Shown here: piece after piece, positions 1-11,028 of the stretch
Layout of the letters: every line of letters begins with the position of its first letter
Position numbering within the stretch: position 1 is the stretch's first letter
Notes under the pieces: generated by a model
The model's database searches: none
What the model was told of the DNA's origin: nothing
Seen by the model: the letters and a program-made list of their open reading frames with translations, nothing else
Translations under genes and position numbers: made by a program
Assembly: GCA_016190205.1 (NCBI GenBank)
Contig: JACPQZ010000008.1
Coordinates: forward strand, 1 to 12,003
DNA: 12,003 nucleotides
Source of the DNA: Candidatus Omnitrophota bacterium
GTDB lineage: Bacteria > Omnitrophota > JACPQZ01
Reading direction: 5' to 3'

Positions 1-169
1 GAGCTGTGTAGATCACCTCACGCCCCTCCCGCATCGCCTGCTTTATAGCTTCTTCAGCGATGAGTGTTTTACCGGAGCCCGTGGGCGCGGAGACCAAGAC
101 GCTTGCGCCCGCCTCGATGGACGCGATGGCCTGCTGTTGAAAGGGGTCGAGCACCAGGTTAGAGTTCAT
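1..169 (-). CDS. Ski2-like DExH-box helicase, N-terminal fragment (cut by window edge)
   Basis: Read on the minus strand from the ATG at 169, the product begins MNSNLVLDPFQQQAIASIEA and continues through APTGSGKT into ...GREVIYTA at the window edge. LDPFQ..AI..I is the Q-motif-like entry and APTGSGKT is motif I (Walker A, P-loop), followed by the motif Ia lead-in (REVIYTA). This arrangement is typical of the superfamily 2 Ski2/Mtr4-like helicases (COG4581), ATP-driven RNA or DNA unwinding enzymes; the family level is established knowledge, the exact substrate is not visible. Only about 56 residues lie in the window. The reading frame stays open upstream to a TTG at 226, overlapping the 3' end of putA by 14 bases, so a longer N-terminus (PPYEVFGNPLHDRRLRHL-) is possible. 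It lies directly downstream of putA on the same strand and may be co-transcribed. No strong Shine-Dalgarno is seen before either start. Confidence 0.82.
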   Translation of the reverse strand, partial: MNSNLVLDPFQQQAIASIEAGASVLVSAPTGSGKTLIAEEAIKQAMREGREVIYTA

Positions 170-212
170 GAGGTGGCGGAGCCTGCGATCATGTAAGGGA
201 TTCCCGAAGACC

Positions 213-3155
213 TCATAAGGGGGCAAAGCCGTGACGGAGGGTGTTTTCGGATATGGTTTGGGCCAGCACAAACTCATCCAGATACCTTGGGCCCCCGGCT
301 TTAAGACCGGTACCCGAGAGTTTAAATCCCCCGAAGGGCTGCCGCCCGACGACCGCCCCCGTGATGGAACGATTGATATAAATATTCCCAGCCTCGAACA
401 CGGCATTCACCTTTTTGATATGGGCCGGGTTTCGGGTGTAAACCCCGCCCGTGAGGGCATAGGCTGTTGAGTTGGCCATTTGGACGGCCTCATCGAAATC
501 GGAGGCCCGCATCACGGCCAGGATGGGGGCGAAGATCTCATCCTGCGCCAAAGGCGATTCGGGCGTAACGCCGGAGACGATCAGGGGTCCGAAGTAAGGG
601 CCCTCCTGCGGGAGATTGGCCTGCGGGTACTCTAAGTGAATCGTGTGGAGCGATGCTGCGATACGAGCGTACTCGCGGGCCTTCTCGAGGGCTGCAGCAT
701 CGATCAAGGGCCCCAGGAATGTGGAAGGTTTTTCGGGGCGGCCCACGCGCAGGCTTTTGGCTGCCTCCACCAGGCGCTTTAAGAAGGTATCATGGATGTC
801 TGAAAGGAGGATGGCGCGCGAGCAGGCAGAGCACTTCTGACCCTGGTATCCAAAGGCAGAGTGAATAACCCCCAGCACCGCTTCATCCAAGTCGGCATCC
901 TTGTCGACGATGATGGCGTTTTTTCCACCCATTTCTGTGATGAGCCTTTTCAAGAATTGTTCACCTTTTTTGAGCTGTCCGACCCGCTCGCGGATGGCAA
1001 GGCCGACTTCCCGCGAGCCTGTGAAGGCGATGAATTTGATGGAAGGGCTCTCGATGAGGCGTGCCCCCGCCTCTTCGCCCCTTCCTGGAAGATAATTGAG
1101 GACCCCGTCAGGAAGCCCTGCCTCTTCAAAAAGGTCCATGAGCTTCCGGGCGACAGCCGGGGACTGCTCTGCCGGTTTCATCACCACGGCGTTTCCCGTC
1201 ACGATGGCGGCGGAGGTCATGCCGGTCAAGATCGCAAGCGGGAAGTTCCACGGGGCGATGACGGCCCCGACGCCTAAAGGGCGGCAGACAAGATCGTTGG
1301 TCTCGCCGGGCACCTGCTGGATAGGTGCAGGCCGGAAAAGCCGTATGGCCTGGCGGCCGTAATAATCGAGATAGTCTATGGCTTCACAGACATCGGCGTC
1401 CGCTTCGCGCCAGCCCTTTCCGACTTCCAGGACTTCGAGCGCTGCGAGATCGAACCGGTGCCTGCGCATCCCCTCCGCCGTCTTGAAGAGAATCTCGGCG
1501 CGGGCTCGAACGCCTCTTTGTGCCCAGGCGGTCTGGGCCTTGCGGGCCGCCTCAATGGCGGCATCTGTCTCGGCCACGCCGGCGCAAGACACGGTTGCGA
1601 TAATCTCATTTAAGTCGGCAGGGTTGGTACTTTGCAGGGTCGAGTTCGTTTGCACGTCTTGACCCATCATGCGCAGGGGAAGGGTCTTTCCGCACTCGTG
1701 GTGCGCCGCTTGGATGGCCTCGCGCATGCGCCGGCGCTCATCTTCATGTGAAAAATCCAAAGGAGGCTCGTTTTGAAAGGAAGGGATGCCCTCCGTCTCC
1801 TGGGTCCCCTCGTCCAGGATGATCTGCGGTTTTGGGGCTCGCACGGTGGACCGCAGGGGGTCTCTCAAGAGGATCTCGGGAGAGGCAGTCGACTCGAGGA
1901 AGCCCTGCCTTAAAAACGACTCATTCGAGGTATTCTCCAAAAGGCGCCTTACCAGATATCCCATCCCGGGAATGAGCTCTCCGAAAGGCGTGTAGACGCG
2001 GACCGGAAGGCCCATCTCGATCAACGCCTCTTGGATGGGATCGGCCATACCGTAAAGGACTTGAAACTCCAGCTCCTTGGGGCCAAGCCCCAGCTGGTTT
2101 TTGAGCGCGGCGGCATGGGCGATGCTCCTCACATTGTGGCTTGCGATCGCGGCGTGCACGTGGGCGTGGTTTTCCAGGAGAAGCGCAGTCAGCCGCTCAA
2201 AGGAAATGTCTGTGTCATGCTTATCGACGAAAACCGGTGTAGGCCAGTTGTTTTGCCTGGCATGAATGACCTCGTAGTCCCAATAGGCGCCCTTAACGAG
2301 ACGCACGGAGACAGGGGTCCGCCGCTTCTTGGCCCATTCGATGAGGTCTACGAGCACGCGCTCCGCATCGCGGTGGTAAGCCTGGATGGCGATTCCGGCA
2401 TCCTCGGTGTCTAAAAATTCCTTTTCACCCAGCGTCTCTTTGAAGATGCGCACGACGAGATCGCGGCAGGTGTATTGCTCCATGTCCAGGCAAACAAATG
2501 CACGGGCGGCGCGGGCCTCCTTCAAGATGTGCGCGAGGCGCTGCTTGACGGCATGCACGGTGCCTTCGGTGTCCACGGGATCGAATTGCGAATAGAGGGC
2601 CGACGGTTTTATGGAGACGTTGGCCCTGTCTCCGAAGGTCTTTGCCAGGGTTTGGATGAGGTTTACCACGCGGTTCGTGTACTCATCGGCTTCCAGCTCG
2701 CTCGTGACGGCCTCACCTAAGAGATCAATGGTAAACGAAGCTCCCCCCTCCTCCATTTTCTTAAGTACCTGGCAGGCCTCCTCAATGTCTTCCGCGGCAA
2801 TGAAGTGAAGCGCCATGCGGCGCACCGCCCAGCGGACGGCATAAGCTGCCGCGCGGCCGGTGAGAAGAGACTCCCCCGCGAGGGCTCGCCCCAGCCTTAA
2901 GGGGAGCGGGAGCCGCTCCATCGTGTCGGGAAAGTATTCCTTCATGTGGTCGATGATGTCACGATGCGTCTTGAGGGCGGGGAGGACGTCCACGAATCTC
3001 AAGATCTTCACCTTGAGTTTTGGGTCTTTGAGGCACCAGGTGAGGACCTGTGCCTCCCAGTCTTTGACCTTGAGGGTGTGCGCCTTGTGGCGGAGCGCCC
3101 GGTCGAAGATCTCGCGGCCTATTGACTGGATGTGCTCTTCAAGTGCATCTGTCAT
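213..3155 (-). CDS. putA: Bifunctional proline dehydrogenase / L-glutamate gamma-semialdehyde dehydrogenase (PutA)
   Basis: Oxidises proline to P5C using FAD, then oxidises the semialdehyde to glutamate with NAD+. With the start chosen here (MTDALEEHIQSIG) it has 980 residues, matching short type B PutA proteins. Residues about 180-415 form the proline dehydrogenase barrel (SIKPSALYSQFDP, VSVRLVKGAYWDYE, LEFQVLYGMADP, YTPFGELIPGMGYLVRRLLEN). Residues about 510-975 form the aldehyde dehydrogenase domain: APWNFP, FTGSREVG, catalytic Glu about 741 in ITEMGGKNA, catalytic Cys about 775 in GQKCSACSR, and FGGFKLSGTG near the end. There is no N-terminal ribbon-helix-helix domain, so it should be a plain enzyme and not the self-regulating PutA repressor. 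The frame stays open to an ATG at 3224, but those 23 extra residues are translated from repeat DNA (3196-3222), which is why I prefer 3155. It is divergent from the ornithine cyclodeaminase gene, whose product proline would be its substrate. Confidence 0.96.
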   Translation of the reverse strand: MTDALEEHIQSIGREIFDRALRHKAHTLKVKDWEAQVLTWCLKDPKLKVKILRFVDVLPALKTHRDIIDHMKEYFPDTMERLPLPLRLGRALAGESLLTGRAAAYAVRWAVRRMALHFIAAEDIEEACQVLKKMEEGGASFTIDLLGEAVTSELEADEYTNRVVNLIQTLAKTFGDRANVSIKPSALYSQFDPVDTEGTVHAVKQRLAHILKEARAARAFVCLDMEQYTCRDLVVRIFKETLGEKEFLDTEDAGIAIQAYHRDAERVLVDLIEWAKKRRTPVSVRLVKGAYWDYEVIHARQNNWPTPVFVDKHDTDISFERLTALLLENHAHVHAAIASHNVRSIAHAAALKNQLGLGPKELEFQVLYGMADPIQEALIEMGLPVRVYTPFGELIPGMGYLVRRLLENTSNESFLRQGFLESTASPEILLRDPLRSTVRAPKPQIILDEGTQETEGIPSFQNEPPLDFSHEDERRRMREAIQAAHHECGKTLPLRMMGQDVQTNSTLQSTNPADLNEIIATVSCAGVAETDAAIEAARKAQTAWAQRGVRARAEILFKTAEGMRRHRFDLAALEVLEVGKGWREADADVCEAIDYLDYYGRQAIRLFRPAPIQQVPGETNDLVCRPLGVGAVIAPWNFPLAILTGMTSAAIVTGNAVVMKPAEQSPAVARKLMDLFEEAGLPDGVLNYLPGRGEEAGARLIESPSIKFIAFTGSREVGLAIRERVGQLKKGEQFLKRLITEMGGKNAIIVDKDADLDEAVLGVIHSAFGYQGQKCSACSRAILLSDIHDTFLKRLVEAAKSLRVGRPEKPSTFLGPLIDAAALEKAREYARIAASLHTIHLEYPQANLPQEGPYFGPLIVSGVTPESPLAQDEIFAPILAVMRASDFDEAVQMANSTAYALTGGVYTRNPAHIKKVNAVFEAGNIYINRSITGAVVGRQPFGGFKLSGTGLKAGGPRYLDEFVLAQTISENTLRHGFAPL

Positions 3156-3195
3156 AATAGAAGTGATATAATCAACACTTATTAATTGGTTTGCT

Positions 3196-3330
3196 GCTGG
3201 TCGCTCGTCGCTGGTCGCTAGCAAACAAAAACTTCGTCAGCTGTTAAGTAGCAACTTCATGTTGCCAGCGAGCACTTACTAGCGACTGCTTTTCTGCCAG
3301 CGACTAGAGACCAGCGACTAGCGACTGACG
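3196..3330. repeat. Short direct and inverted GCGAC/CTAG repeats in divergent spacer
   Basis: The spacer between putA and the next gene holds degenerate units of one theme. GCTGGTCGCT occurs at 3196-3205 and 3210-3219. On the other side, CCAGCGACTAG occurs at 3297-3307 and 3311-3321, and CTAGCGACTG at 3279-3288 and 3318-3327. The two sides are roughly inverted relative to one another (CGCTGGTCGCTAG at 3209-3221 versus CTAGCGAC/CCAGCGAC on the right). Between them is a small hairpin, GCAAC-TTCAT-GTTGC (3251-3265). It carries no gene. It may be a dispersed intergenic repeat family and could fold into a long imperfect cruciform. Any promoters for the two flanking genes must lie in or beside it; none is convincing. 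Confidence 0.7.
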
Positions 3331-3349
3331 TTTGTGTTAGAGAGTCAAC

Positions 3350-4561
3350 ATGCCTTCCCAAACCGTTACCATAAGAGGCCACATCATCGACTCCCTCATC
3401 CTGCCCAAGATCCTGGACGAGATCATGGATGCGTCCGGGAGCTTCAAGATTGAGCACATCCGCATCGGCCAGAAAAAGACGGATACCAGCACCGCCCAGG
3501 TAAAAGTATCTGCCAACACGGCGCCGCACCTTGCAAATATCATCAGGCGCATATCAAAAATCGGCGCCGTGCCGGTGGCCGAAGAAGATGCAAAGCTCGA
3601 ACCGGCGCCGCGGCATGGCGTCTTTCCCGAAGACTTTTATTGTACTACAAATCTAATCACGTGGGTGCACTTTGAGGGGCGCTGGATACCGGTCCGGAAC
3701 ATCGAGATGGACTGCGGCATCGTCATCCAAAAAGGAAAGGCCTGGTGCACTCCGGTGGGAAAAGTGAGGCGCGGCGAGCGTGTGGTCTGTGGACACGCAG
3801 GGGTCAAGGTCATACCGCTCGAGCGTTCGAGAAAAAGCGAAACCTTTCAGTTTATGACGAGCTCCATCTCTTCAGAAAAACCCAAGGGCCGCATCATCCG
3901 GGGGCTCGCCCGGGAAATCCGGGAAGTGCGGCGCAGGGGCGGGAAGATTTTAGTGGTGGCGGGGCCTGCGGTAGTCCACACGGGGGCAGGGCGTTACCTC
4001 GAGCAGATGATCCGGATGGGATATGTGCAGGTCCTCTTCGCAGGGAATGGGCTCGCGACGCATGATATGGAATACGCGCTCTTCGGAACTTCACTGGGTG
4101 TTAACTTAGATAAAGGAGAGCCGGAGAAATACGGCCACGACCACCACATGCGCGCCATCAATGCGATTCGCGCGGCCGGCGGAATCCGCCGTGCGGTGCG
4201 GAAAGGGCTCCTCAAAAAAGGCATCATGCATGCGTGCGTCCAGAAAGGGGTTCAGGTTGTGCTGGCTGGGTCTGTTCGTGACGATGGACCTCTGCCCGAT
4301 GTTATCACAGACGTCATCGAGGCCCAGGACGCCATGCGCAAGAAAATAAAAGGGGTCTCCCTGGCCCTCATGATTGCGAGCACTCTTCACTCCATTGCGA
4401 CGGGCAACATGCTGCCCGCCACCGTGAGAACCATCTGCGTCGACATCAACCCCGCTGTAGTCACCAAGGTAGCTGATCGCGGCACGTTCCAAATCCTTGG
4501 TCTCGTTACGGATACAGAGTCCTTTCTTAGGGAGCTGTGTCACGCGTTAAACCGGCGCTAA
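3350..4561 (+). CDS. TIGR00300/LOR-SDH family protein, predicted ornithine cyclodeaminase
   Basis: Predicted to convert L-ornithine to L-proline plus ammonia with bound NAD. The 403 residues match the usual length (about 400) of the TIGR00300 family, known from archaeal alternative ornithine cyclodeaminase and as the C-terminal half of cyanobacterial ArgZ/AgrE. Residues about 1-100 form the LOR/SDH N-terminal region (MPSQTVTIRGHIIDSLILPKILD). DCGIVI lies at 121-126 and GHAGVKVIP at 148-156. A nucleotide-binding segment GGKILVVAGPAVVHTGAG spans 197-214, and LFAGNGLATHDMEYALFGTSLG spans about 229-250. GHDHHMRAINAIRAAGG covers about 262-278, VLAGSVRDDGPLPDV 304-318, and the family-typical CVDINPAVVTKVADRG 363-378. 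The ATG at 3350 has a modest AGAGAG about 5 bases upstream. An older alternative annotation is lysine-ketoglutarate reductase/saccharopine dehydrogenase-related protein. The divergent putA and nearby arginine dihydrolase-like gene favour the ornithine-to-proline role. Confidence 0.88.
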   Translation: MPSQTVTIRGHIIDSLILPKILDEIMDASGSFKIEHIRIGQKKTDTSTAQVKVSANTAPHLANIIRRISKIGAVPVAEEDAKLEPAPRHGVFPEDFYCTTNLITWVHFEGRWIPVRNIEMDCGIVIQKGKAWCTPVGKVRRGERVVCGHAGVKVIPLERSRKSETFQFMTSSISSEKPKGRIIRGLAREIREVRRRGGKILVVAGPAVVHTGAGRYLEQMIRMGYVQVLFAGNGLATHDMEYALFGTSLGVNLDKGEPEKYGHDHHMRAINAIRAAGGIRRAVRKGLLKKGIMHACVQKGVQVVLAGSVRDDGPLPDVITDVIEAQDAMRKKIKGVSLALMIASTLHSIATGNMLPATVRTICVDINPAVVTKVADRGTFQILGLVTDTESFLRELCHALNRR

Positions 4562-4568
4562 ATACAGC

Positions 4569-4597
4569 TTTACAATATAATCAAATAACTGTATACT
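4569..4597 (+). promoter_or_regulatory. Predicted sigma70 promoter for the 904-residue protein gene
   Basis: TTTACA (4569-4574) and TATACT (4592-4597) are separated by exactly 17 bases; each matches the consensus hexamer at five of six positions. The predicted start of transcription lies about 40 bases before the ATG at 4645. A second TATAAT (4576-4581) lies inside the spacer but has no acceptable -35. The presence of a promoter here suggests that the exported-protein gene is not simply read through from the upstream cyclodeaminase gene. No clear terminator hairpin follows the upstream stop at 4561. Confidence 0.5.
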
Positions 4598-4644
4598 ACA
4601 TCTTATTCGAAGTTCCCGCCCCTGTATTACCCAATTAACCGGAA

Positions 4645-7359
4645 ATGGATAAGTCAAAGATAATGATAAGGAATTTCTTCGTCATAAACTGCCTGTTAGC
4701 AGTTGCGTGCACCCATGCATGCCTGGCAGACACCATAAAACAACCTACACTACTTGACGAAGACTCCCAGGTAATAATGACGAGCTTGGAGGCAGCGCAA
4801 AGGCTTAAAAGAATTGCCATGGTTTTGCAATTTGAGCGTTCGGATAGTATCGAGATCCGTCATCTTTTAGATGGTCCGCTTAGAGGTTTTAGTGTGACTC
4901 AAGGAGAGGGCACCCTTAAGATTCAAGCCCAGGAAGGTCCACAATTTCTCCTTGCAAGCGGCGCAGGCCCCGCCGCGCTTTTTGAATCGGGTGACGTGCT
5001 GAACCTCGGTGACGGAATCACGTTGCATGTGCTCTCCCAGCGCGTGGCTCGGGTTCCGGACGGTGACGGCGTGCGTGTGCCCCGTGGCGCAGAAGTCGAA
5101 GGTGTGCTTAAGGAACTTCGAAGTAGAGACAGGGAGAAAATTAAGAATGCAATTCGGAAAGTGCTTTTGTGGACGGAGACCCTTTCCTCCGGCAAGGTGG
5201 GCAAGCCGCTCGAGAAGCGTTCGCGCGAGCTTGTCGAGCAGCTGCGTCGAAGCATGTCTAAACAGACTGGCGATGAGACTACGCGGATGAGTCAAGAGGC
5301 CCTGCTTGCACTGGCAGAACGGTGGAGATGGGGCTTGGGGTTGTTTGCGCACTTGAGGTTAGAACCTAACGAGATCGGGCTTCCGGCACTTCTTGATTGG
5401 GAAGACTTCGGCCGTTTTTTAGAGGCATGGGGGCAAATACGGATGCTCCCGCAGTTTAATGAGCTTACCTTGGGGGCCCGGGCCGTCCTTCGTTCCTACC
5501 TGCTCGAGGGAACATCGGCCGAGGATTCGCCCTCGCTTTTGCTCGAGGCCGGAGAGGGATATATGACCTACCTGGCGCATTTGGAAGCACTGGATCGGAT
5601 TCTTGGTTTTCCCCAAGCGTCCGTTGATCTTGCATACCCCAGCGACTATCAGAAGGATTTCAGGGCGGCGGTGGGGCCGGCGGTAGCCTTTTCCTTCGGT
5701 GTGGGCCCGCATGAAATGGCGCCTGTTGAATATTCCCAAAGAGAGAGGCAGGCCCTCATCCGCCTTTTGCCTGCCTATCCCAGCGTACTGATGCACCTCA
5801 TCAGGCAGTTTGTGAAGCAGGCACGTATCGATGCCGTCCGGACCATACCCGTGTACCACTTCGCTTTGACGCCCACCGAGGATATTGTCCCTTTGGCACT
5901 CGCGCTTTTCTTTCATCGGGAATGGGGACCCATGGCTATTCCAGAAGGGTGGATCGCCGAGGGCGATATTACCTTTCCGGGCATACGCATCCGGAGACAA
6001 GGGATGGTCGATGCGTTTAGCGGAAAAAAAGGCAGCGCGGCATACCTTTCGCTTGCGGTTGAGCCGCTGGATTATGTGACCTATGGAGGAACGAAAACGG
6101 AGAGAGATTTCTCCCGCATCGGTCGCGCACCTTACATGCGAATTCTTCAGGACGTTCCTACATTTCTGGTTGCCTCACAGACGGGTTTTGAAGACCCATT
6201 GGGGAAGGCGTTTGTCCAGTTCCGTGTCGGATGGTATACGCTCTTGAGAGATATCGATTACCCGGCGCTGAATAACTGGGTCAATAGCGCAATGAGAGGA
6301 GTGCGCTCCGAGGAATTCACGCGCCAACACAGCCTCGCTTTTTATCAAGCGAGTCAGGCTATGTTTGACGAGATCACGGGCATGGATCCCGAAGAGGCCA
6401 GATCCGGTCATGTGGATATAGAAAATATCCCGTCGGGCAACGAGGAGTTTCGCATAAAGCTTCGCGCGCTCTTGGACGATACGAGGCAGTCTGTTGGGGA
6501 GGCCCTCTTTTCCGACGACAGAATTCATGACCGCCTGGGCTCGTATCGCGAGGCGCGTGCGCCCAAGAATTTAAGTGACAATTTTGCGGCCTTGGTGAAT
6601 GCCTTAAAAGGGCAGGTTTTCAGGGTGCCGGATGAATCCTATGAATATAGGCGCACTCTGGCTGCGCTCAAGGTCCTTGCTCCTCAGAAGGCAGCGGACA
6701 TTCAGACAGCGCTCGAGACGGTGAGGCAAAGGCAGGCGGGTATCCAATCTCCAGAAGACCCCGGGGGACTGTCTGCGGGGGACGGAGTGCTTGCTGAAGT
6801 GAGTAAAGCCCTATTGTTTGAAGAGCGCATCGAGCCCATCCGCTCGACCCTCGAACGCGCCCGCTCGGGCGAGATCGGTTGGCGTGATGCAGCGCGCCGG
6901 ATTTCCGAGGGCGCCGCTTCCCTGACGACATTTCATGCAGTGGTTGCAGTGGGGGAGGGCGCTGCATCCTTTATTGATCAGCACGTCCTTGAAGAAAAGA
7001 CACTTCTACGTGTGGCCCTTGTTCCGACAGAGGATATCCCAGGATGGAACAAGGCGCATCCCGGCTGGCGGGCGGTTCACGTCAATATGGTATTGTCGGC
7101 GGAACGCAAGGTTTCCGTTCCCAAACTGCTCCCCATTTTGAAAGAGCAGTATGGAGTTGGAAATGTGGGCATTCTCTTTACCCTTTTTGACGATGCATGG
7201 ATTGATCTTAGAGACCCCCATGACCCCACGGCTTGGGACATTCAGCGCTTCCTCACCGAAATCCATGCCGCGCAGGAACTTTTGCGAACCGGCACTCCTA
7301 CCCTGGATAATTACCGGGAGTTTTACAGAGCCGCAGCGCTTACCCGAGTCGCCGCCTGA
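4645..7359 (+). CDS. Large predicted exported protein of unknown family (904 aa)
   Basis: I do not recognise this family. The N-terminus has a basic stretch (MDKSKIMIRN) followed by a hydrophobic segment (FFVINCLLAVACTHACLA), consistent with a Sec signal peptide. Cleavage after ACLA, or lipid attachment at the Cys of LLAVAC, are both possible but the lipobox is imperfect. No other membrane segment is evident. Residues about 40-125 look beta-rich and glycine-containing. About 125-230 and 620-750 are charged and helical (for example LKELRSRDREKIKNAIRKVL and RRTLAALKVLAPQKAADIQTAL), and the rest is mixed. A nine-residue segment recurs with seven identities: FALTPTEDI (ending near residue 414) and VALVPTEDI (ending near 798). 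No catalytic motif is recognised. An internal start at Met7 (4663) is equally good; neither has a strong ribosome binding site. It sits between the predicted cyclodeaminase and arginine dihydrolase genes, but nothing in the protein itself shows a link to arginine. Confidence 0.8.
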   Translation: MDKSKIMIRNFFVINCLLAVACTHACLADTIKQPTLLDEDSQVIMTSLEAAQRLKRIAMVLQFERSDSIEIRHLLDGPLRGFSVTQGEGTLKIQAQEGPQFLLASGAGPAALFESGDVLNLGDGITLHVLSQRVARVPDGDGVRVPRGAEVEGVLKELRSRDREKIKNAIRKVLLWTETLSSGKVGKPLEKRSRELVEQLRRSMSKQTGDETTRMSQEALLALAERWRWGLGLFAHLRLEPNEIGLPALLDWEDFGRFLEAWGQIRMLPQFNELTLGARAVLRSYLLEGTSAEDSPSLLLEAGEGYMTYLAHLEALDRILGFPQASVDLAYPSDYQKDFRAAVGPAVAFSFGVGPHEMAPVEYSQRERQALIRLLPAYPSVLMHLIRQFVKQARIDAVRTIPVYHFALTPTEDIVPLALALFFHREWGPMAIPEGWIAEGDITFPGIRIRRQGMVDAFSGKKGSAAYLSLAVEPLDYVTYGGTKTERDFSRIGRAPYMRILQDVPTFLVASQTGFEDPLGKAFVQFRVGWYTLLRDIDYPALNNWVNSAMRGVRSEEFTRQHSLAFYQASQAMFDEITGMDPEEARSGHVDIENIPSGNEEFRIKLRALLDDTRQSVGEALFSDDRIHDRLGSYREARAPKNLSDNFAALVNALKGQVFRVPDESYEYRRTLAALKVLAPQKAADIQTALETVRQRQAGIQSPEDPGGLSAGDGVLAEVSKALLFEERIEPIRSTLERARSGEIGWRDAARRISEGAASLTTFHAVVAVGEGAASFIDQHVLEEKTLLRVALVPTEDIPGWNKAHPGWRAVHVNMVLSAERKVSVPKLLPILKEQYGVGNVGILFTLFDDAWIDLRDPHDPTAWDIQRFLTEIHAAQELLRTGTPTLDNYREFYRAAALTRVAA

Positions 7360-7372
7360 CATCTGCCAGATG
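7360..7372. other. Small perfect inverted repeat after the exported-protein stop
   Basis: CATCTG-C-CAGATG is a perfect 6+6 inverted repeat that begins one base after the TGA at 7357-7359. The single-base centre is too small for an RNA hairpin without opening inner pairs, and no T-run follows, so it is a poor intrinsic terminator. It could equally be a binding site for a dimeric protein upstream of the following transcription unit. Confidence 0.35.
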
Positions 7373-7392
7373 CGTATTCGTAGCTGATAAAA

Positions 7393-7410
7393 CAGGGTAT
7401 AATATCCCTG
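7393..7410 (+). promoter_or_regulatory. -10 element inside an inverted repeat, upstream of the arginine dihydrolase-like gene
   Basis: A perfect TATAAT (7398-7403) is embedded in CAGGGTATAATATCCCTG. Allowing one extra T (7398), the arms CAGGG-ATA and TAT-CCCTG pair over eight bases. No good -35 is seen at 16-18 bases upstream (the best are weak, around 7374-7382), as might be expected of a promoter needing an activator. The arrangement suggests a promoter overlapped by an operator, driving the 7482-11028 gene chain. This is inference from sequence shape only. Confidence 0.4.
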
Positions 7411-7456
7411 GGTTGTGGCTTCTCACCCCACGCTTGGCAGTTCGCGATGACCGATC

Positions 7457-7474
7457 CACGAATCACGATTCACG
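7457..7474. repeat. Heptamer tandem repeat CACGAWT in leader
   Basis: CACGAAT-CACGATT-CACG is two and a half copies of a seven-base unit; it also contains the inverted pair GAATC..GATTC. It lies just before the chosen start at 7482. If the in-frame upstream ATG at 7413 were used, this DNA would be translated as part of an unusual 23-residue leader, which argues for the later start. Confidence 0.5.
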
Positions 7475-7481
7475 GACAAAT

Positions 7482-8276
7482 ATGTTAACCTTTCTGATGT
7501 GTCGCCCGCGGTACTACCGCGTCGCCTATGAGATCAATCCGTGGATGAAAGTCCGCCATCCCGTGGAGCGCGATCAGGCTGCGGCGCAGTGGGAAGTGCT
7601 TTACAAAACCCTGCGCGGGCTTCCGGGAGTCAAGGTCAAGCTTATCCCTCATGCGCGCGGCTGGCCGGACATGGTTTTTACAGCCAATGGCGGCCTCGTC
7701 TTTGACCGCTCGGTCGTCATCCCTAATTTTCGCTACCCCCAGAGGCAGGGGGAGGCAAGGCATTTTGGCGCCTGGTTTGGAAAGAAGGGCTACCGCCTCA
7801 TCCGGATTCCCTCGCGATTTCAATTCGAAGGAGAGGGAGATGCCCTTAAGCTCGGGGACACCTGGTTTTTCGGCTACCATTTCCGCTCCGATATCTCGAG
7901 CCACCAGTGGCTGTCGGAGAAGCTTAAGGCGCGCGTCCTTTCCCTCGAGCTTGTGGATAAGCGTTTTTACCACCTGGATACTTGCTTTTTACCACTCTCT
8001 GACTCAAGCTGCCTTTACTACCCGAAGGCCTTTGATCCTTATGCGAGAAAGCTCATCGAGCGTTATGTGCCGAATCCAGTTGCTGTTGGTTTAAGGGATG
8101 CCTTAAAGTTTGTCTGTAACGCAATCGCGGTGGGTAAGAGACTCGTGGTGCATAAGGGGGTTTCCCGCCCCTTGAGGCGAACCCTTGAAAAAATGGGTTT
8201 CCGGTTTATTGAACTTGAGCTGGGAGAATTTCTCAAGGCAGGGGGCTCGGCCAAATGTCTTGTGTTAAGGCTTTAG
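7482..8276 (+). CDS. Amidinotransferase-fold protein, predicted arginine dihydrolase (stand-alone ArgZ/AgrE N-domain-like)
   Basis: Belongs to the guanidino-group-modifying (amidinotransferase/DDAH) superfamily and most resembles the N-terminal domain of cyanobacterial ArgZ/AgrE, which hydrolyses arginine to ornithine, CO2 and two ammonia. From the ATG at 7482 it has 264 residues, about one such domain. Visible motifs are CRPRYYRVAYEINPWM (7-22), WPDMVFTANGGLV (61-73, Asn69), FEGEGDAL (115-122), FYHLDTCFLPL (162-172, catalytic His164) and near the C-terminus GGSAKCLVL with the predicted nucleophile Cys259. From memory, ArgZ needs an Asn near 71 and a Cys near 264, which fit Asn69 and Cys259. 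The frame opens earlier (7413), but the added residues look like repeat-derived leader. Its stop touches the ATG of the radical SAM gene. Alternatives are dimethylarginine dimethylaminohydrolase or arginine deiminase-like; the Asn in FTANGG, where DDAH-like enzymes have acidic residues, favours the dihydrolase. Confidence 0.83.
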   Translation: MLTFLMCRPRYYRVAYEINPWMKVRHPVERDQAAAQWEVLYKTLRGLPGVKVKLIPHARGWPDMVFTANGGLVFDRSVVIPNFRYPQRQGEARHFGAWFGKKGYRLIRIPSRFQFEGEGDALKLGDTWFFGYHFRSDISSHQWLSEKLKARVLSLELVDKRFYHLDTCFLPLSDSSCLYYPKAFDPYARKLIERYVPNPVAVGLRDALKFVCNAIAVGKRLVVHKGVSRPLRRTLEKMGFRFIELELGEFLKAGGSAKCLVLRL

Positions 8277-9296
8277 ATGATCCGAAGACTTAAAAATCCG
8301 CCCAATCCTTTTGATTCCCAATACGTGGAGTGGCTGGGGGAGCCTCCGGTCACCCAGCCGCAGGTTTATCTTGATCAGACGCGCACGATCCTTGCGAAAA
8401 ATGAAAGTCCGGATCTCCCCTTCACCTGGAGTGTGAATCCTTACCGGGGATGTTTTCACGCATGTGCCTACTGTTATGCGCGGCCGAGCCATGAGTATTT
8501 GGGCTGGGGTGCGGGGAGCGACTTTGAAAACCGGCTCGTGGTAAAGAAAGACGCCCCGCGCCTTCTGCGTGAGGCATTTATGAGATCGTTGTGGAAAGGA
8601 GAGCTCGTCGTCTTTTCGGGAGACACCGACTGCTACCAGCCGCTTGAGGCGGGCTGGCACCTCACCCGCGAGTGTCTTCAGGTTTGCCTTGAATTTAGAA
8701 ATCCCGTGGGTATCGTCACAAAATCTGCATTGATTCAGAAAGATCTCGATCTTTTGATGCGCTTAAGCCGCGAAGCCCACCTTACAGTCTACTTCAGCAT
8801 TCCCTTCGCAGATGAGAAAATAGCGCGCCTTATCGAGCCGCAGGCGCCCACCCTCAAGCGGCGCCTCGAGGCCCTCAAGGCCCTGTCGGAGGCGGGCGTC
8901 TTTACCGGGGTTCTTGTGGCGCCCGTCATCCCCGGCTTGAACGATGAGGCGATTCCAGCGATCTTAAAGGCTGCCAAGGCGCATGGAGCGCGCCAGGCAA
9001 GTTTCGTGCTTTTGAGGTTATCGGGCAGCGTGCGCGAGGTGTTTTTAAAAACGCTCCGGCAGAAGTTTCCGGGTTCTGCAGATAAGATTATTAAAAGGAT
9101 CCGCGAGGTAAGGGGCGGAAAGATCACGGAGAGTGAATTTTTTTACAGGCAAAGGGGTGAGGGCGAGTACTGGAAAAGCATAGAGCAAATATTTAATGTG
9201 CACCGCGACCGGTTGGGGCTTAACGAAAACCACCCCCTGCCCCCGGTGAGCCCCTTCAGACGTCCCTCGCCGCAGTCGGAGTTCGTTTTCAGCTAA
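8277..9296 (+). CDS. Radical SAM protein, SPL/PA0069-like (COG1533)
   Basis: A 339-residue radical S-adenosylmethionine enzyme. The [4Fe-4S] cluster motif is C59-FHA-C63-AY-C66 in NPYRGCFHACAYCYARPSHEYLGW, which together with the following DFENRLVVK and VVFSGDTDCYQPLE segments is characteristic of the spore-photoproduct-lyase-like PA0069/Rv2578c group. VTKSALIQKDLDLL and VAPVIPGLND are later barrel motifs. The biochemical role of this group is not established to my knowledge; the SPL-like label reflects homology and not proven DNA repair. It lacks recognisable extra domains. The ATG at 8277 follows the previous stop codon with no gap, and its TAA overlaps the next ATG by one base, so it is almost certainly co-transcribed and translationally coupled with both neighbours. 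Confidence 0.9.
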   Translation: MIRRLKNPPNPFDSQYVEWLGEPPVTQPQVYLDQTRTILAKNESPDLPFTWSVNPYRGCFHACAYCYARPSHEYLGWGAGSDFENRLVVKKDAPRLLREAFMRSLWKGELVVFSGDTDCYQPLEAGWHLTRECLQVCLEFRNPVGIVTKSALIQKDLDLLMRLSREAHLTVYFSIPFADEKIARLIEPQAPTLKRRLEALKALSEAGVFTGVLVAPVIPGLNDEAIPAILKAAKAHGARQASFVLLRLSGSVREVFLKTLRQKFPGSADKIIKRIREVRGGKITESEFFYRQRGEGEYWKSIEQIFNVHRDRLGLNENHPLPPVSPFRRPSPQSEFVFS

Positions 9297-10477
9297 TGTA
9301 TCCCATCGTGTTACTAAAGAAGGGCCGGGAAAAATCCATCGCGAGAAGGCACCCATGGATCTTTTCGGGCGCTGTCCAAAGGGCTGACGCCCCCGCCGCA
9401 GCCGGGGGGCTCGTTTGCGTGGAGTCGGAAAAGCAACTCCCCCTGGCCACGGGATATTACAATCCGCAGTCTGATATCCGCGTTCGGATATTGGACTTTA
9501 AGGAAAGTAAGATTGACGAGGGTTTTTTCACCGAGAGATTTAAGCGGGCTTGGGATTCGAGGAAAAACCTGCTCGGGGCCGAAACGGATGCGTGGCGCCT
9601 CATCAATAGCGAGGGCGACGGGCTTCCCGGCCTCGTGGTGGATCGCTATGCGGATGGGCTTGTAGTAAGCGTGGAGACGCTGGGGATGGAGCGGCTTAAA
9701 CCCCTTTGGCTTAAGGCCCTTGAGGATGCTGTCAAGCCGCAGTTTATCTTTGAGCGCAGTGAAAGGGATGAAAGGGAGTCGGACCGTGGTTCCAAACCTG
9801 TGCGCGCATTGCTTTCGGGTGAGAGGGAAGCAGGCCGCGTGGTGATTCGCGAGGGGGGGTGCCGCTACCTTGTGGATTTCGAGAAGGGGCAGAAGACCGG
9901 GTTTTATTTGGACCAGAGGGAAGGCAGGCGCTGGGTGGGGCGGCTTGCGAAGGATCGGCGCGTCCTCAATCTCTTTTCATACTCCGGCGGCTTCACCGTG
10001 CAGGCCCTCAAGGAAGGCGCCCGGGAGGTGGTGTCCGTGGATTCGTCGAGGCCCGCCCTTGAGCTTTTGGAAGAAAACCTCGCCTTGAACGGCCTGGACT
10101 CGGCCTCAAGCGATGCTGTGGAAGGCAATGTATTCGACTTTTTAAGGACGGAGAAGGCGGGGGAGTTTGGACTTGTGATCGTAGATCCCCCCTCCTTTGC
10201 CCGCAGGCGCAGTGAAACCCAGAAGGCCGGCCGGGCGTACAAGGACGTGAACAGGCTCGCTTTTCAAAGAGCGGCGCCGGGAGGTTATGTCCTCACCTAT
10301 TCCTGTTCGCATTTTTTCCCGTATGAACTTTTTATCAAGATTGTTTATCAGGCGGCCCTCGAGGCGGGGCGCGAGGCGCGCATCTTAAACCGCTTTTCTC
10401 ATCCGGTGGATCACCCAGTGCATATTTTCCACCCGGAGGGGGAGTATTTTAAGGGGCTGTTGCTGGAGGTGAGTTGA
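9296..10477 (+). CDS. rlmI: RlmI-like class I SAM-dependent rRNA (cytosine-C5) methyltransferase
   Basis: Predicted to methylate C5 of a 23S rRNA cytosine (position 1962 in E. coli for RlmI). The 393-residue length matches the family (E. coli RlmI about 396). Residues 1-70 form a PUA-like RNA-binding domain (RREHP-type [11 protein letters not shown] at 17-27). Residues 101-117 have the family [30 protein letters not shown] at 199-211 is the conserved RlmI signature. The Rossmann methyltransferase core has motif [10 protein letters not shown] (225-233), acidic VVSVDSS (246-251), motif [11 protein letters not shown] (296-304) and the catalytic-cysteine region YSCSH (335-339, Cys337). The C-terminus [14 protein letters not shown] is typical. 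The segment 155-180 ([26 protein letters not shown]) is polar and looks like a variable loop. Start and stop both overlap neighbours by one base. A paralogous RlmI-like methyltransferase with a different target cannot be excluded. Confidence 0.9.
10465..10472 (+). promoter_or_regulatory. Strong Shine-Dalgarno for the macrodomain gene, inside the rlmI 3' end
   Basis: GGAGGTGA ends four bases before the ATG at 10477 (GGAGG core seven bases upstream). It is by far the clearest ribosome binding site in the window and fixes the start at 10477 over the TTG at 10474. Because the upstream stop and this ATG overlap in TGATG, terminating ribosomes can also restart here. Confidence 0.75.
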
Positions 10478-11028
10478 TGAAGATAGAAGTGGGTCGGGCA
10501 GTGATCGAGCTTGTCCAAGGCGACATCACCGAGCAGGACGTGGACGCAATCGTTAACGCGGCCAATTCGGGGCTTATGGGAGGGGGAGGGGTGGACGGCG
10601 CGATTCACCGCGCGGGCGGACCTAAGATCCTGGCGGAGTGCCGCAAAATAAGAGAGAAACTGCCGGACGGATTGCCGGCCGGGCAGGCCGTGATGACAAC
10701 CGGGGGAAGGTTAAAGGCGCGGCACGTGATCCATGCGGTAGGGCCGCGCTGGCGGGGCGGCACGCATGGAGAGCCTGCACTCCTTGCGGATTGTTACACG
10801 AACAGTGTCAAGCTTGCGGATGAGAAGGGATTAAAAAGCGTCTCTTTCCCCTCCATCAGCACCGGGATATACGGGTATCCCGTAGAAAAAGCGGCCCCCG
10901 TGGCCATGGGCGCGGTCAAGGCCTTTCTTAAGAGAGCGAAATGTGTCGCCGTGGTTCGCTTTGTGCTTTTCGATTCCGGGACATACTCCGCATACGCCGC
11001 CGTCATCGCCGCGCCCCACAGTGTCTGA
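10477..11028 (+). CDS. MacroD-type macrodomain protein, O-acetyl-ADP-ribose deacetylase / ADP-ribose hydrolase
   Basis: A stand-alone macrodomain of 183 residues, the usual size of the YmdB/MacroD class. GDIT (15-18) begins the adenine-binding region. [27 protein letters not shown] (22-48) holds the catalytic NAAN asparagines (27, 30), the glycine-rich loop and the conserved Asp40. GPRWRGG (89-95) and [15 protein letters not shown] (126-140) supply the diphosphate-binding loop. The family removes ADP-ribose from acidic residues or hydrolyses O-acetyl-ADP-ribose and some act on RNA ends. It is the last of four tightly packed genes starting at 7482. No ADP-ribosyltransferase gene (for example a DarT) is adjacent within the window, so it does not look like a DarTG-type toxin-antitoxin. 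Confidence 0.94.

What the first reader, a model, noticed from the sequence alone, without database searches (positions are those of the whole stretch)
213..8276. Complete arginine to glutamate route with ArgZ/AgrE split into two genes
The window encodes an ArgZ N-domain-like arginine dihydrolase (7482-8276), a TIGR00300 ornithine cyclodeaminase (3350-4561) and PutA (213-3155), in order arginine, ornithine, proline, glutamate. In cyanobacteria the first two are one fused protein. Here the two parts (264 and 403 residues, together close to the size of the fused enzyme as I recall it) are separate genes about 2.9 kb apart. This could be the unfused form of the pathway in a lineage where it has not been described, allowing arginine to serve as nitrogen and carbon source.
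Basis: partly seen in the sequence, partly recalled or inferred. Interest (0 to 1): 0.65.

Follow-up and report, generated by a model that had tools for sequence, protein, structure and literature searches.

The report
Unfused arginine-to-glutamate gene cluster
A little-studied bacterium (Omnitrophota) carries, as three separate clustered genes, enzymes that very probably turn arginine into ornithine, proline and then glutamate; cyanobacteria do the first two steps with one fused protein, and comparison shows that the unfused gene set is widespread in other phyla, so it is a sound new variant of a known pathway.

Summary
The genes are at the stated coordinates. PutA (213-3155, minus) is divergent from a TIGR00300 ornithine cyclodeaminase (OCD, 3350-4561); a 904-codon ORF of unknown function follows, then an ArgZ-type protein (7482-8276). 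The contig is from an Omnitrophota MAG. Among 384 Omnitrophota genomes, all 13 with OCD also have ArgZ (27 have ArgZ; Fisher p about 4e-17). In one family putA<- ->ocd->argZ recurs in ten genomes, ocd and argZ adjacent. The ocd->argZ pair also occurs in Methylomirabilota, Nitrospirota, Chloroflexota, Planctomycetota and Deltaproteobacteria/Myxococcota. The cyanobacterial fusion is one clade with the opposite domain order, so separate genes look like the widespread form, not a split fusion. The ArgZ-type protein does not group with actinobacterial dimethylargininases (100/100 branch; 10 of 19 group-specific positions ArgZ-like, none DDAH-like). It falls below both NCBIfam cut-offs, and the proposed Asn/His/Cys check does not discriminate, because dimethylargininases share these residues. 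ProA, ProB and ProC are present, which argues for catabolism. Dihydrolase activity is inferred, not shown. No OCD-bearing genome here has a complete LarB/C/E set, at odds with NCBIfam's 'nickel-pincer-dependent' label.

The parts
213..3155 (-). putA: bifunctional proline dehydrogenase / L-glutamate gamma-semialdehyde dehydrogenase
   Evidence: Pfam PutA_N, Pro_dh 293 bits, Aldedh 478 bits; best NCBIfam PutA equivalog NF008869 659 bits, under its cut-off of 747
3156..3349 (.). divergent intergenic region between putA and ocd; holds an inverted repeat 3200-3221 / 3304-3325 (22 nt, 91%)
3350..4561 (+). ocd: TIGR00300 ornithine cyclodeaminase, equivalent of the AgrE C-terminal part and of archaeal MMP1218-type enzymes
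   Evidence: TIGR00300 535.7 bits; PDB 6lrf/6lrh (Alr4995) 357 bits, 3c2q 340 bits
4645..7359 (+). 904-codon ORF of unknown function lying between ocd and argZ; absent from this place in all relatives seen; not thought to belong to the pathway
   Evidence: no Pfam or NCBIfam match; weak relatives (27-33%) inside much longer open frames of four other Omnitrophota
7482..8276 (+). argZ-type arginine dihydrolase (inferred), unfused
   Evidence: PDB Sll1336/Alr4995 E about 1e-71; NF052232 290 bits (cut-off 450), NF045659 dimethylargininase 265 bits (cut-off 300); trees

Best explanation
This is an unfused arginine catabolic gene cluster. An ArgZ-type dihydrolase hydrolyses arginine to ornithine, CO2 and 2 NH3 [inferred]. 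A TIGR00300 cyclodeaminase converts ornithine to proline and NH3 [family function, inferred here]. PutA oxidises proline to glutamate [family function]. The separate genes ocd->argZ, often with divergent putA, are the widespread form in several phyla; the cyanobacterial AgrE/ArgZ fusion is a single clade with the two parts in the reverse order. In this genome a 904-codon ORF has come to lie between ocd and argZ.
For: Domain and structure matches. All 13 OCD-bearing Omnitrophota genomes out of 384 carry ArgZ (Fisher p about 4e-17). putA<- ->ocd->argZ is found in ten genomes of one Omnitrophota family and in a Thermodesulfovibrionia MAG. Adjacent ocd->argZ pairs occur in Methylomirabilota, Nitrospirota, Chloroflexota, Planctomycetota and Deltaproteobacteria/Myxococcota. 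The ArgZ tree separates all of these from dimethylargininases at 100/100; group-specific positions of the window protein: 10 ArgZ-like, 0 DDAH-like, 9 other. 69 residues are invariant over 26 OCDs, separate and fused. ProB, ProA and ProC are all over their cut-offs in the same genome, so proline does not have to come from ornithine.
Against: The ArgZ-type protein is below NCBIfam's arginine dihydrolase cut-off (290 < 450) and that score leads the dimethylargininase score by only 25 bits. The outgroup is five proteins, four named by annotation only and one unannotated. Fourteen Omnitrophota genomes have ArgZ without a detected OCD; two of these are cut by contig ends, the rest (mostly family f2) are not explained. 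In this genome the pair is not adjacent. Arginine uptake and regulation were not examined. Nothing has been assayed.
Confidence: 0.82

Rival explanations
1. The 264-aa protein is a dimethylargininase or deiminase-like hydrolase giving citrulline; its nearness to ocd and putA is incidental.
For: It scores 265 bits on the M. tuberculosis-type dimethylargininase model, near that cut-off of 300; Asn69, His164 and Cys259 are shared with dimethylargininases.
Against: Annotated dimethylargininases score over 430 on that model and about 190-200 on arginine dihydrolase, the reverse of the window and its kin. 100/100 separation in the tree. No DDAH-like state at 19 group-specific positions. Linkage with ocd in at least six phyla; citrulline is not a substrate expected for an ornithine cyclodeaminase (general knowledge).
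Confidence: 0.1
2. OCD serves proline biosynthesis, as reported for the archaeal MMP1218 enzyme, and ArgZ only feeds it ornithine; putA is separate.
For: The archaeal OCD family was reported to make proline from ornithine in Methanococcus maripaludis (cited in PMC10809761).
Against: The genome has proB (381 bits), proA (468 bits) and proC (267 bits), all over cut-off; putA is divergently adjacent in this and ten related loci.
Confidence: 0.07
3. The two genes derive from a cyanobacterial-type fusion that broke into two genes.
For: Together they have close to the length of AgrE and align to its two halves.
Against: The fused order is ArgZ-OCD, every separate pair found is OCD-ArgZ, and the fused proteins form one clade among separate ones.
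Confidence: 0.04

Closest known systems
Cyanobacterial AgrE / ArgZ (Alr4995, Sll1336), bifunctional arginine dihydrolase/ornithine cyclodeaminase, followed by PutA
   Same: Both enzyme parts with the active-site residues, same pathway to glutamate with PutA (pathway as described in PMC8262935)
   Different: Two genes instead of one, opposite order, about 48% (ArgZ part) and 43% (OCD part) identity; gene cluster with divergent putA; not cyanobacterial
Archaeal TIGR00300 ornithine cyclodeaminase (MMP1218 type; closest solved archaeal-type chain 3c2q)
   Same: Stand-alone OCD of the same family, well over the cut-off
   Different: Reported role in archaea is proline biosynthesis; here linked to argZ and putA in a genome with proABC
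Actinobacterial / M. tuberculosis-type dimethylargininase (NF045659)
   Same: Same superfamily, shared Asn/His/Cys, about 40% identity
   Different: Separate clade; Ala in place of Cys168, Ala in place of Gly71 and other group-specific positions

Membership tests
Arginine dihydrolase (ArgZ N-domain) | Closest solved relatives are ArgZ/AgrE N-domains | tested here: met
   E about 1e-71 against 3e-7 for DDAH
Arginine dihydrolase (ArgZ N-domain) | Asn (Sll1336 Asn71), His and Cys of the active site | tested here: met
   Asn69, His164, Cys259 aligned; not diagnostic, dimethylargininases share them
Arginine dihydrolase (ArgZ N-domain) | NCBIfam NF052232 curated cut-off (450 bits) | tested here: not met
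   290 bits; the other separate ArgZ proteins tested score 250-294, so the model is tuned to a narrower set
Arginine dihydrolase (ArgZ N-domain) | Clade apart from dimethylargininases | tested here: met
   100/100 branch
Arginine dihydrolase (ArgZ N-domain) | Ornithine and 2 NH3 from arginine | not testable with these tools
   needs assay
Dimethylargininase NF045659 | Curated cut-off (300 bits) | tested here: not met
   264.8 bits
Bifunctional ArgZ/AgrE (NF052231) | Both activities in one polypeptide | tested here: not met
   two genes 2.9 kb apart; best score 423 against cut-off 1025
TIGR00300 ornithine cyclodeaminase | Curated cut-off (410.8 bits) | tested here: met
   535.7 bits over positions 2-405 of 407
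TIGR00300 ornithine cyclodeaminase | Nickel-pincer cofactor supply (LarB, LarC, LarE) implied by the NCBIfam name | tested here: inconclusive
   own genome and G039 have LarB and LarC, no LarE over cut-off; the 11 family-f43 genomes have LarB and LarE, no LarC; no complete set, but MAGs are incomplete and a divergent or substitute enzyme is possible
PutA | Proline dehydrogenase and P5C dehydrogenase domains in one protein | tested here: met
   PutA_N, Pro_dh, Aldedh; NF008869 equivalog cut-off itself not reached (659 < 747)

The most novel reading that the evidence does not exclude
An ocd-argZ-putA cluster of separate genes, spread over Omnitrophota, Nitrospirota, Planctomycetota, Chloroflexota and others, is the older form of the arginine-to-glutamate route from which cyanobacterial AgrE was made by an order-reversing fusion, and its cyclodeaminase works without a locally made nickel-pincer cofactor.
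Probability: 0.4. Interest if true: 0.55.

Novelty: new variant of a known kind. Interest (0 to 1): 0.42.

Why it matters
The arginine dihydrolase route is described, in the papers I could read, as a cyanobacterial route tied to one fused enzyme. A conserved cluster of separate genes in at least six other phyla would make it a general bacterial route, give clean single-activity proteins for enzymology, fill a band of proteins that falls between the arginine dihydrolase and dimethylargininase models and is liable to misannotation, and allow a direct test of which cofactor TIGR00300 cyclodeaminases need.

Tried and rejected
A 'reverse fusion' in L047 (720-aa ORF) was rejected: the OCD part lies in another frame. 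A similar automatic call for L157 was a cyclodeaminase cut off at the contig end. L097 is not counted among the split pairs because only 73 residues of OCD align (it carries the 'spl' label in the trees). L039 was left out because its ArgZ frame is interrupted. The idea that the contig is foreign to the genome was rejected on tetranucleotide profile. No RNA family in the window. Open-access literature searches found no paper on unfused ArgZ/OCD pairs, nor on a nickel-pincer cofactor of this cyclodeaminase; the two JBC structure papers are not held. The 904-codon ORF had no hit in viral contigs and was not folded for lack of a usable alignment.

Full report
Observation. The window is one whole contig (C61, 12,003 bp) of a 1.65-Mb genome, 92.8% complete. 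Its relatives in the same phylum include contigs identical in length to named Candidatus Omnitrophota records (G039:C23, 23,904 bp = JACQQS010000048.1; G033:C52 = JAHFHG010000020.1; G019:C13 = JAUYMS010000048.1), so the organism is an Omnitrophota bacterium. The window's tetranucleotide profile correlates 0.94 with pooled other contigs of the same genome; four of the five contigs in that pool give 0.92-0.95 against it, or 0.86-0.92 when left out of it. Between ocd and argZ lies a single ORF of 904 codons with no known family.

Identity of the parts. The 403-aa protein is a full-length TIGR00300 member (535.7 bits, cut-off 410.8) and matches both the C-terminal part of AgrE (357 bits) and chain 3c2q (340 bits). 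PutA has all three expected domains, though it scores below the NCBIfam PutA equivalog cut-off. The 264-aa protein matches the N-domains of Sll1336 and Alr4995 over its whole length. It falls in a gap between two curated models: 290 bits on arginine dihydrolase (cut-off 450) and 265 on M. tuberculosis-type dimethylargininase (cut-off 300). Two annotated dimethylargininases score over 430 on the second and 190-200 on the first; other separate ArgZ proteins score like the window.

Is it dihydrolase or dimethylargininase? The residues proposed for the check (Asn69, His164, Cys259) are present, but five actinobacterial dimethylargininase-type proteins have them too, so they do not discriminate. 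What separates the groups: in a careful tree of 82 sequences the dimethylargininases lie behind a 100/100 branch, and the fused cyanobacterial proteins form one clade (100/99) amid the separate ones; the window sits with the Omnitrophota and Methylomirabilis proteins that adjoin ocd (93/96) (quick tree). At 19 positions where fused ArgZ and dimethylargininases differ cleanly, the window is ArgZ-like at 10, dimethylargininase-like at none, and has a third residue at 9. The tree is rooted on a small outgroup known mostly by annotation, so the root, and with it the claim that separate genes are older, is not settled.

Context. A scan of named genomes and the analysis of its 80 loci show two arrangements. 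Cyanobacteria have one protein of about 703 aa, ArgZ first. Elsewhere ocd and argZ are separate, ocd always upstream, usually with only tens of bases between the aligned parts: Methylomirabilis (L033), Omnitrophota (L034), Nitrospirota (L035, L037, L093), Chloroflexota (L036, L066), Deltaproteobacteria/Myxococcota (L038, L069) and Planctomycetota (L046, L060, L091). In L036 and L091 only part of ocd is held. L037 also has putA divergent upstream. In 384 Omnitrophota genomes, OCD occurs in 13 (12 over cut-off plus one fragment at a contig end) and ArgZ in 27; all 13 OCD genomes have ArgZ (Fisher p about 4e-17; genomes are related, so this overstates independence). In family f43, ten genomes show putA<- ->ocd->argZ (one of them with putA cut by the contig end). 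G039 has ocd->argZ without putA nearby. The window therefore shows the f43 arrangement with an extra ORF inserted; that ORF has only weak relatives, inside much longer open frames of four other Omnitrophota and in none of the other ocd-argZ genomes.

Function. The most likely flow is arginine -> ornithine -> proline -> glutamate, releasing three ammonia and one CO2 on the way to proline, as described for cyanobacteria (PMC8262935). The rival that OCD serves proline synthesis, as in methanogens (PMC10809761), is weakened by the presence of proB, proA and proC in the same genome and by the linkage to putA. Shown: presence, domain content, conservation, linkage. Inferred: enzyme activities, direction, physiological role.

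Cofactor. NCBIfam names TIGR00300 'nickel-pincer nucleotide-dependent'. The genes for making that cofactor are not complete in any OCD-bearing Omnitrophota genome: this genome and G039 have LarB and LarC but no LarE over cut-off; the eleven f43 genomes have LarB and LarE but no LarC; two genomes of family f2 without OCD have all three. MAG gaps could hide single genes but hardly the same gene eleven times. Either the family does not need that cofactor here, or a non-standard enzyme supplies a step. No open paper on the point was found.

Verdict. It is a new variant of a known pathway, of moderate interest.

Noticed in passing
L136 (G185:C126) 4173-9773 (+) and 9905-15580 (-): Two convergent giant ORFs of 1866 and 1891 codons with signal-like N-termini: one carries two TIGR00300-type cyclodeaminase Rossmann domains, the other Pro_dh and Aldedh domains of PutA. 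OCD and PutA are linked again, but inside giant proteins, and no ArgZ was found in that genome.
   Followed up: partly
window 4645-7359 (+): 904-codon ORF with a signal-like N-terminus and no known family; weak relatives inside open frames of 1194-5781 codons in four other Omnitrophota.
   Followed up: partly
family f43 genomes and G000/G039 (L146-L156): Incomplete nickel-pincer pathways in complementary ways: LarB+LarE without LarC in eleven genomes, LarB+LarC without LarE in two.
   Followed up: partly
L131 5481-8371 and L133 9494-12542: PutA is itself split into separate proline dehydrogenase and aldehyde dehydrogenase ORFs in two genomes of the f43 family.
   Followed up: no
L026 (G011:C55) 4982-7517: An aldehyde dehydrogenase gene followed by a distant guanidino-enzyme relative (28% to the window ArgZ), perhaps another arginine or guanidino catabolic pair.
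   Followed up: no
window 3200-3325: Intergenic inverted repeat of CAGCGACTAGCGAC-like units between putA and ocd (4 matches, 0.07 expected); the unit also occurs in L131 but in no other fetched contig of this genome.
   Followed up: partly
window 7393-7410: Palindrome CAGGGTATAATATCCCTG just upstream of argZ that encloses a TATAAT-like hexamer; could be a separate promoter/operator for argZ.
   Followed up: no
window 8276-11028: argZ abuts, and is followed without gaps by, a PA0069-family radical SAM gene, an RlmI-like methyltransferase and a macro-domain gene.
   Followed up: no
L054, L059, L063, L065, L072, L077, L080, L112 and Omnitrophota family f2 (L019-L025): ArgZ-type genes without ocd nearby in Planctomycetota and in Omnitrophota family f2; what uses their ornithine is unknown. 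L025 has lost the Asn, His and Cys of the active site.
   Followed up: partly
L030 (G000:C20) 1-10000: A contig of the same genome with a very different tetranucleotide profile (0.42 in leave-one-out), perhaps foreign or repetitive.
   Followed up: no
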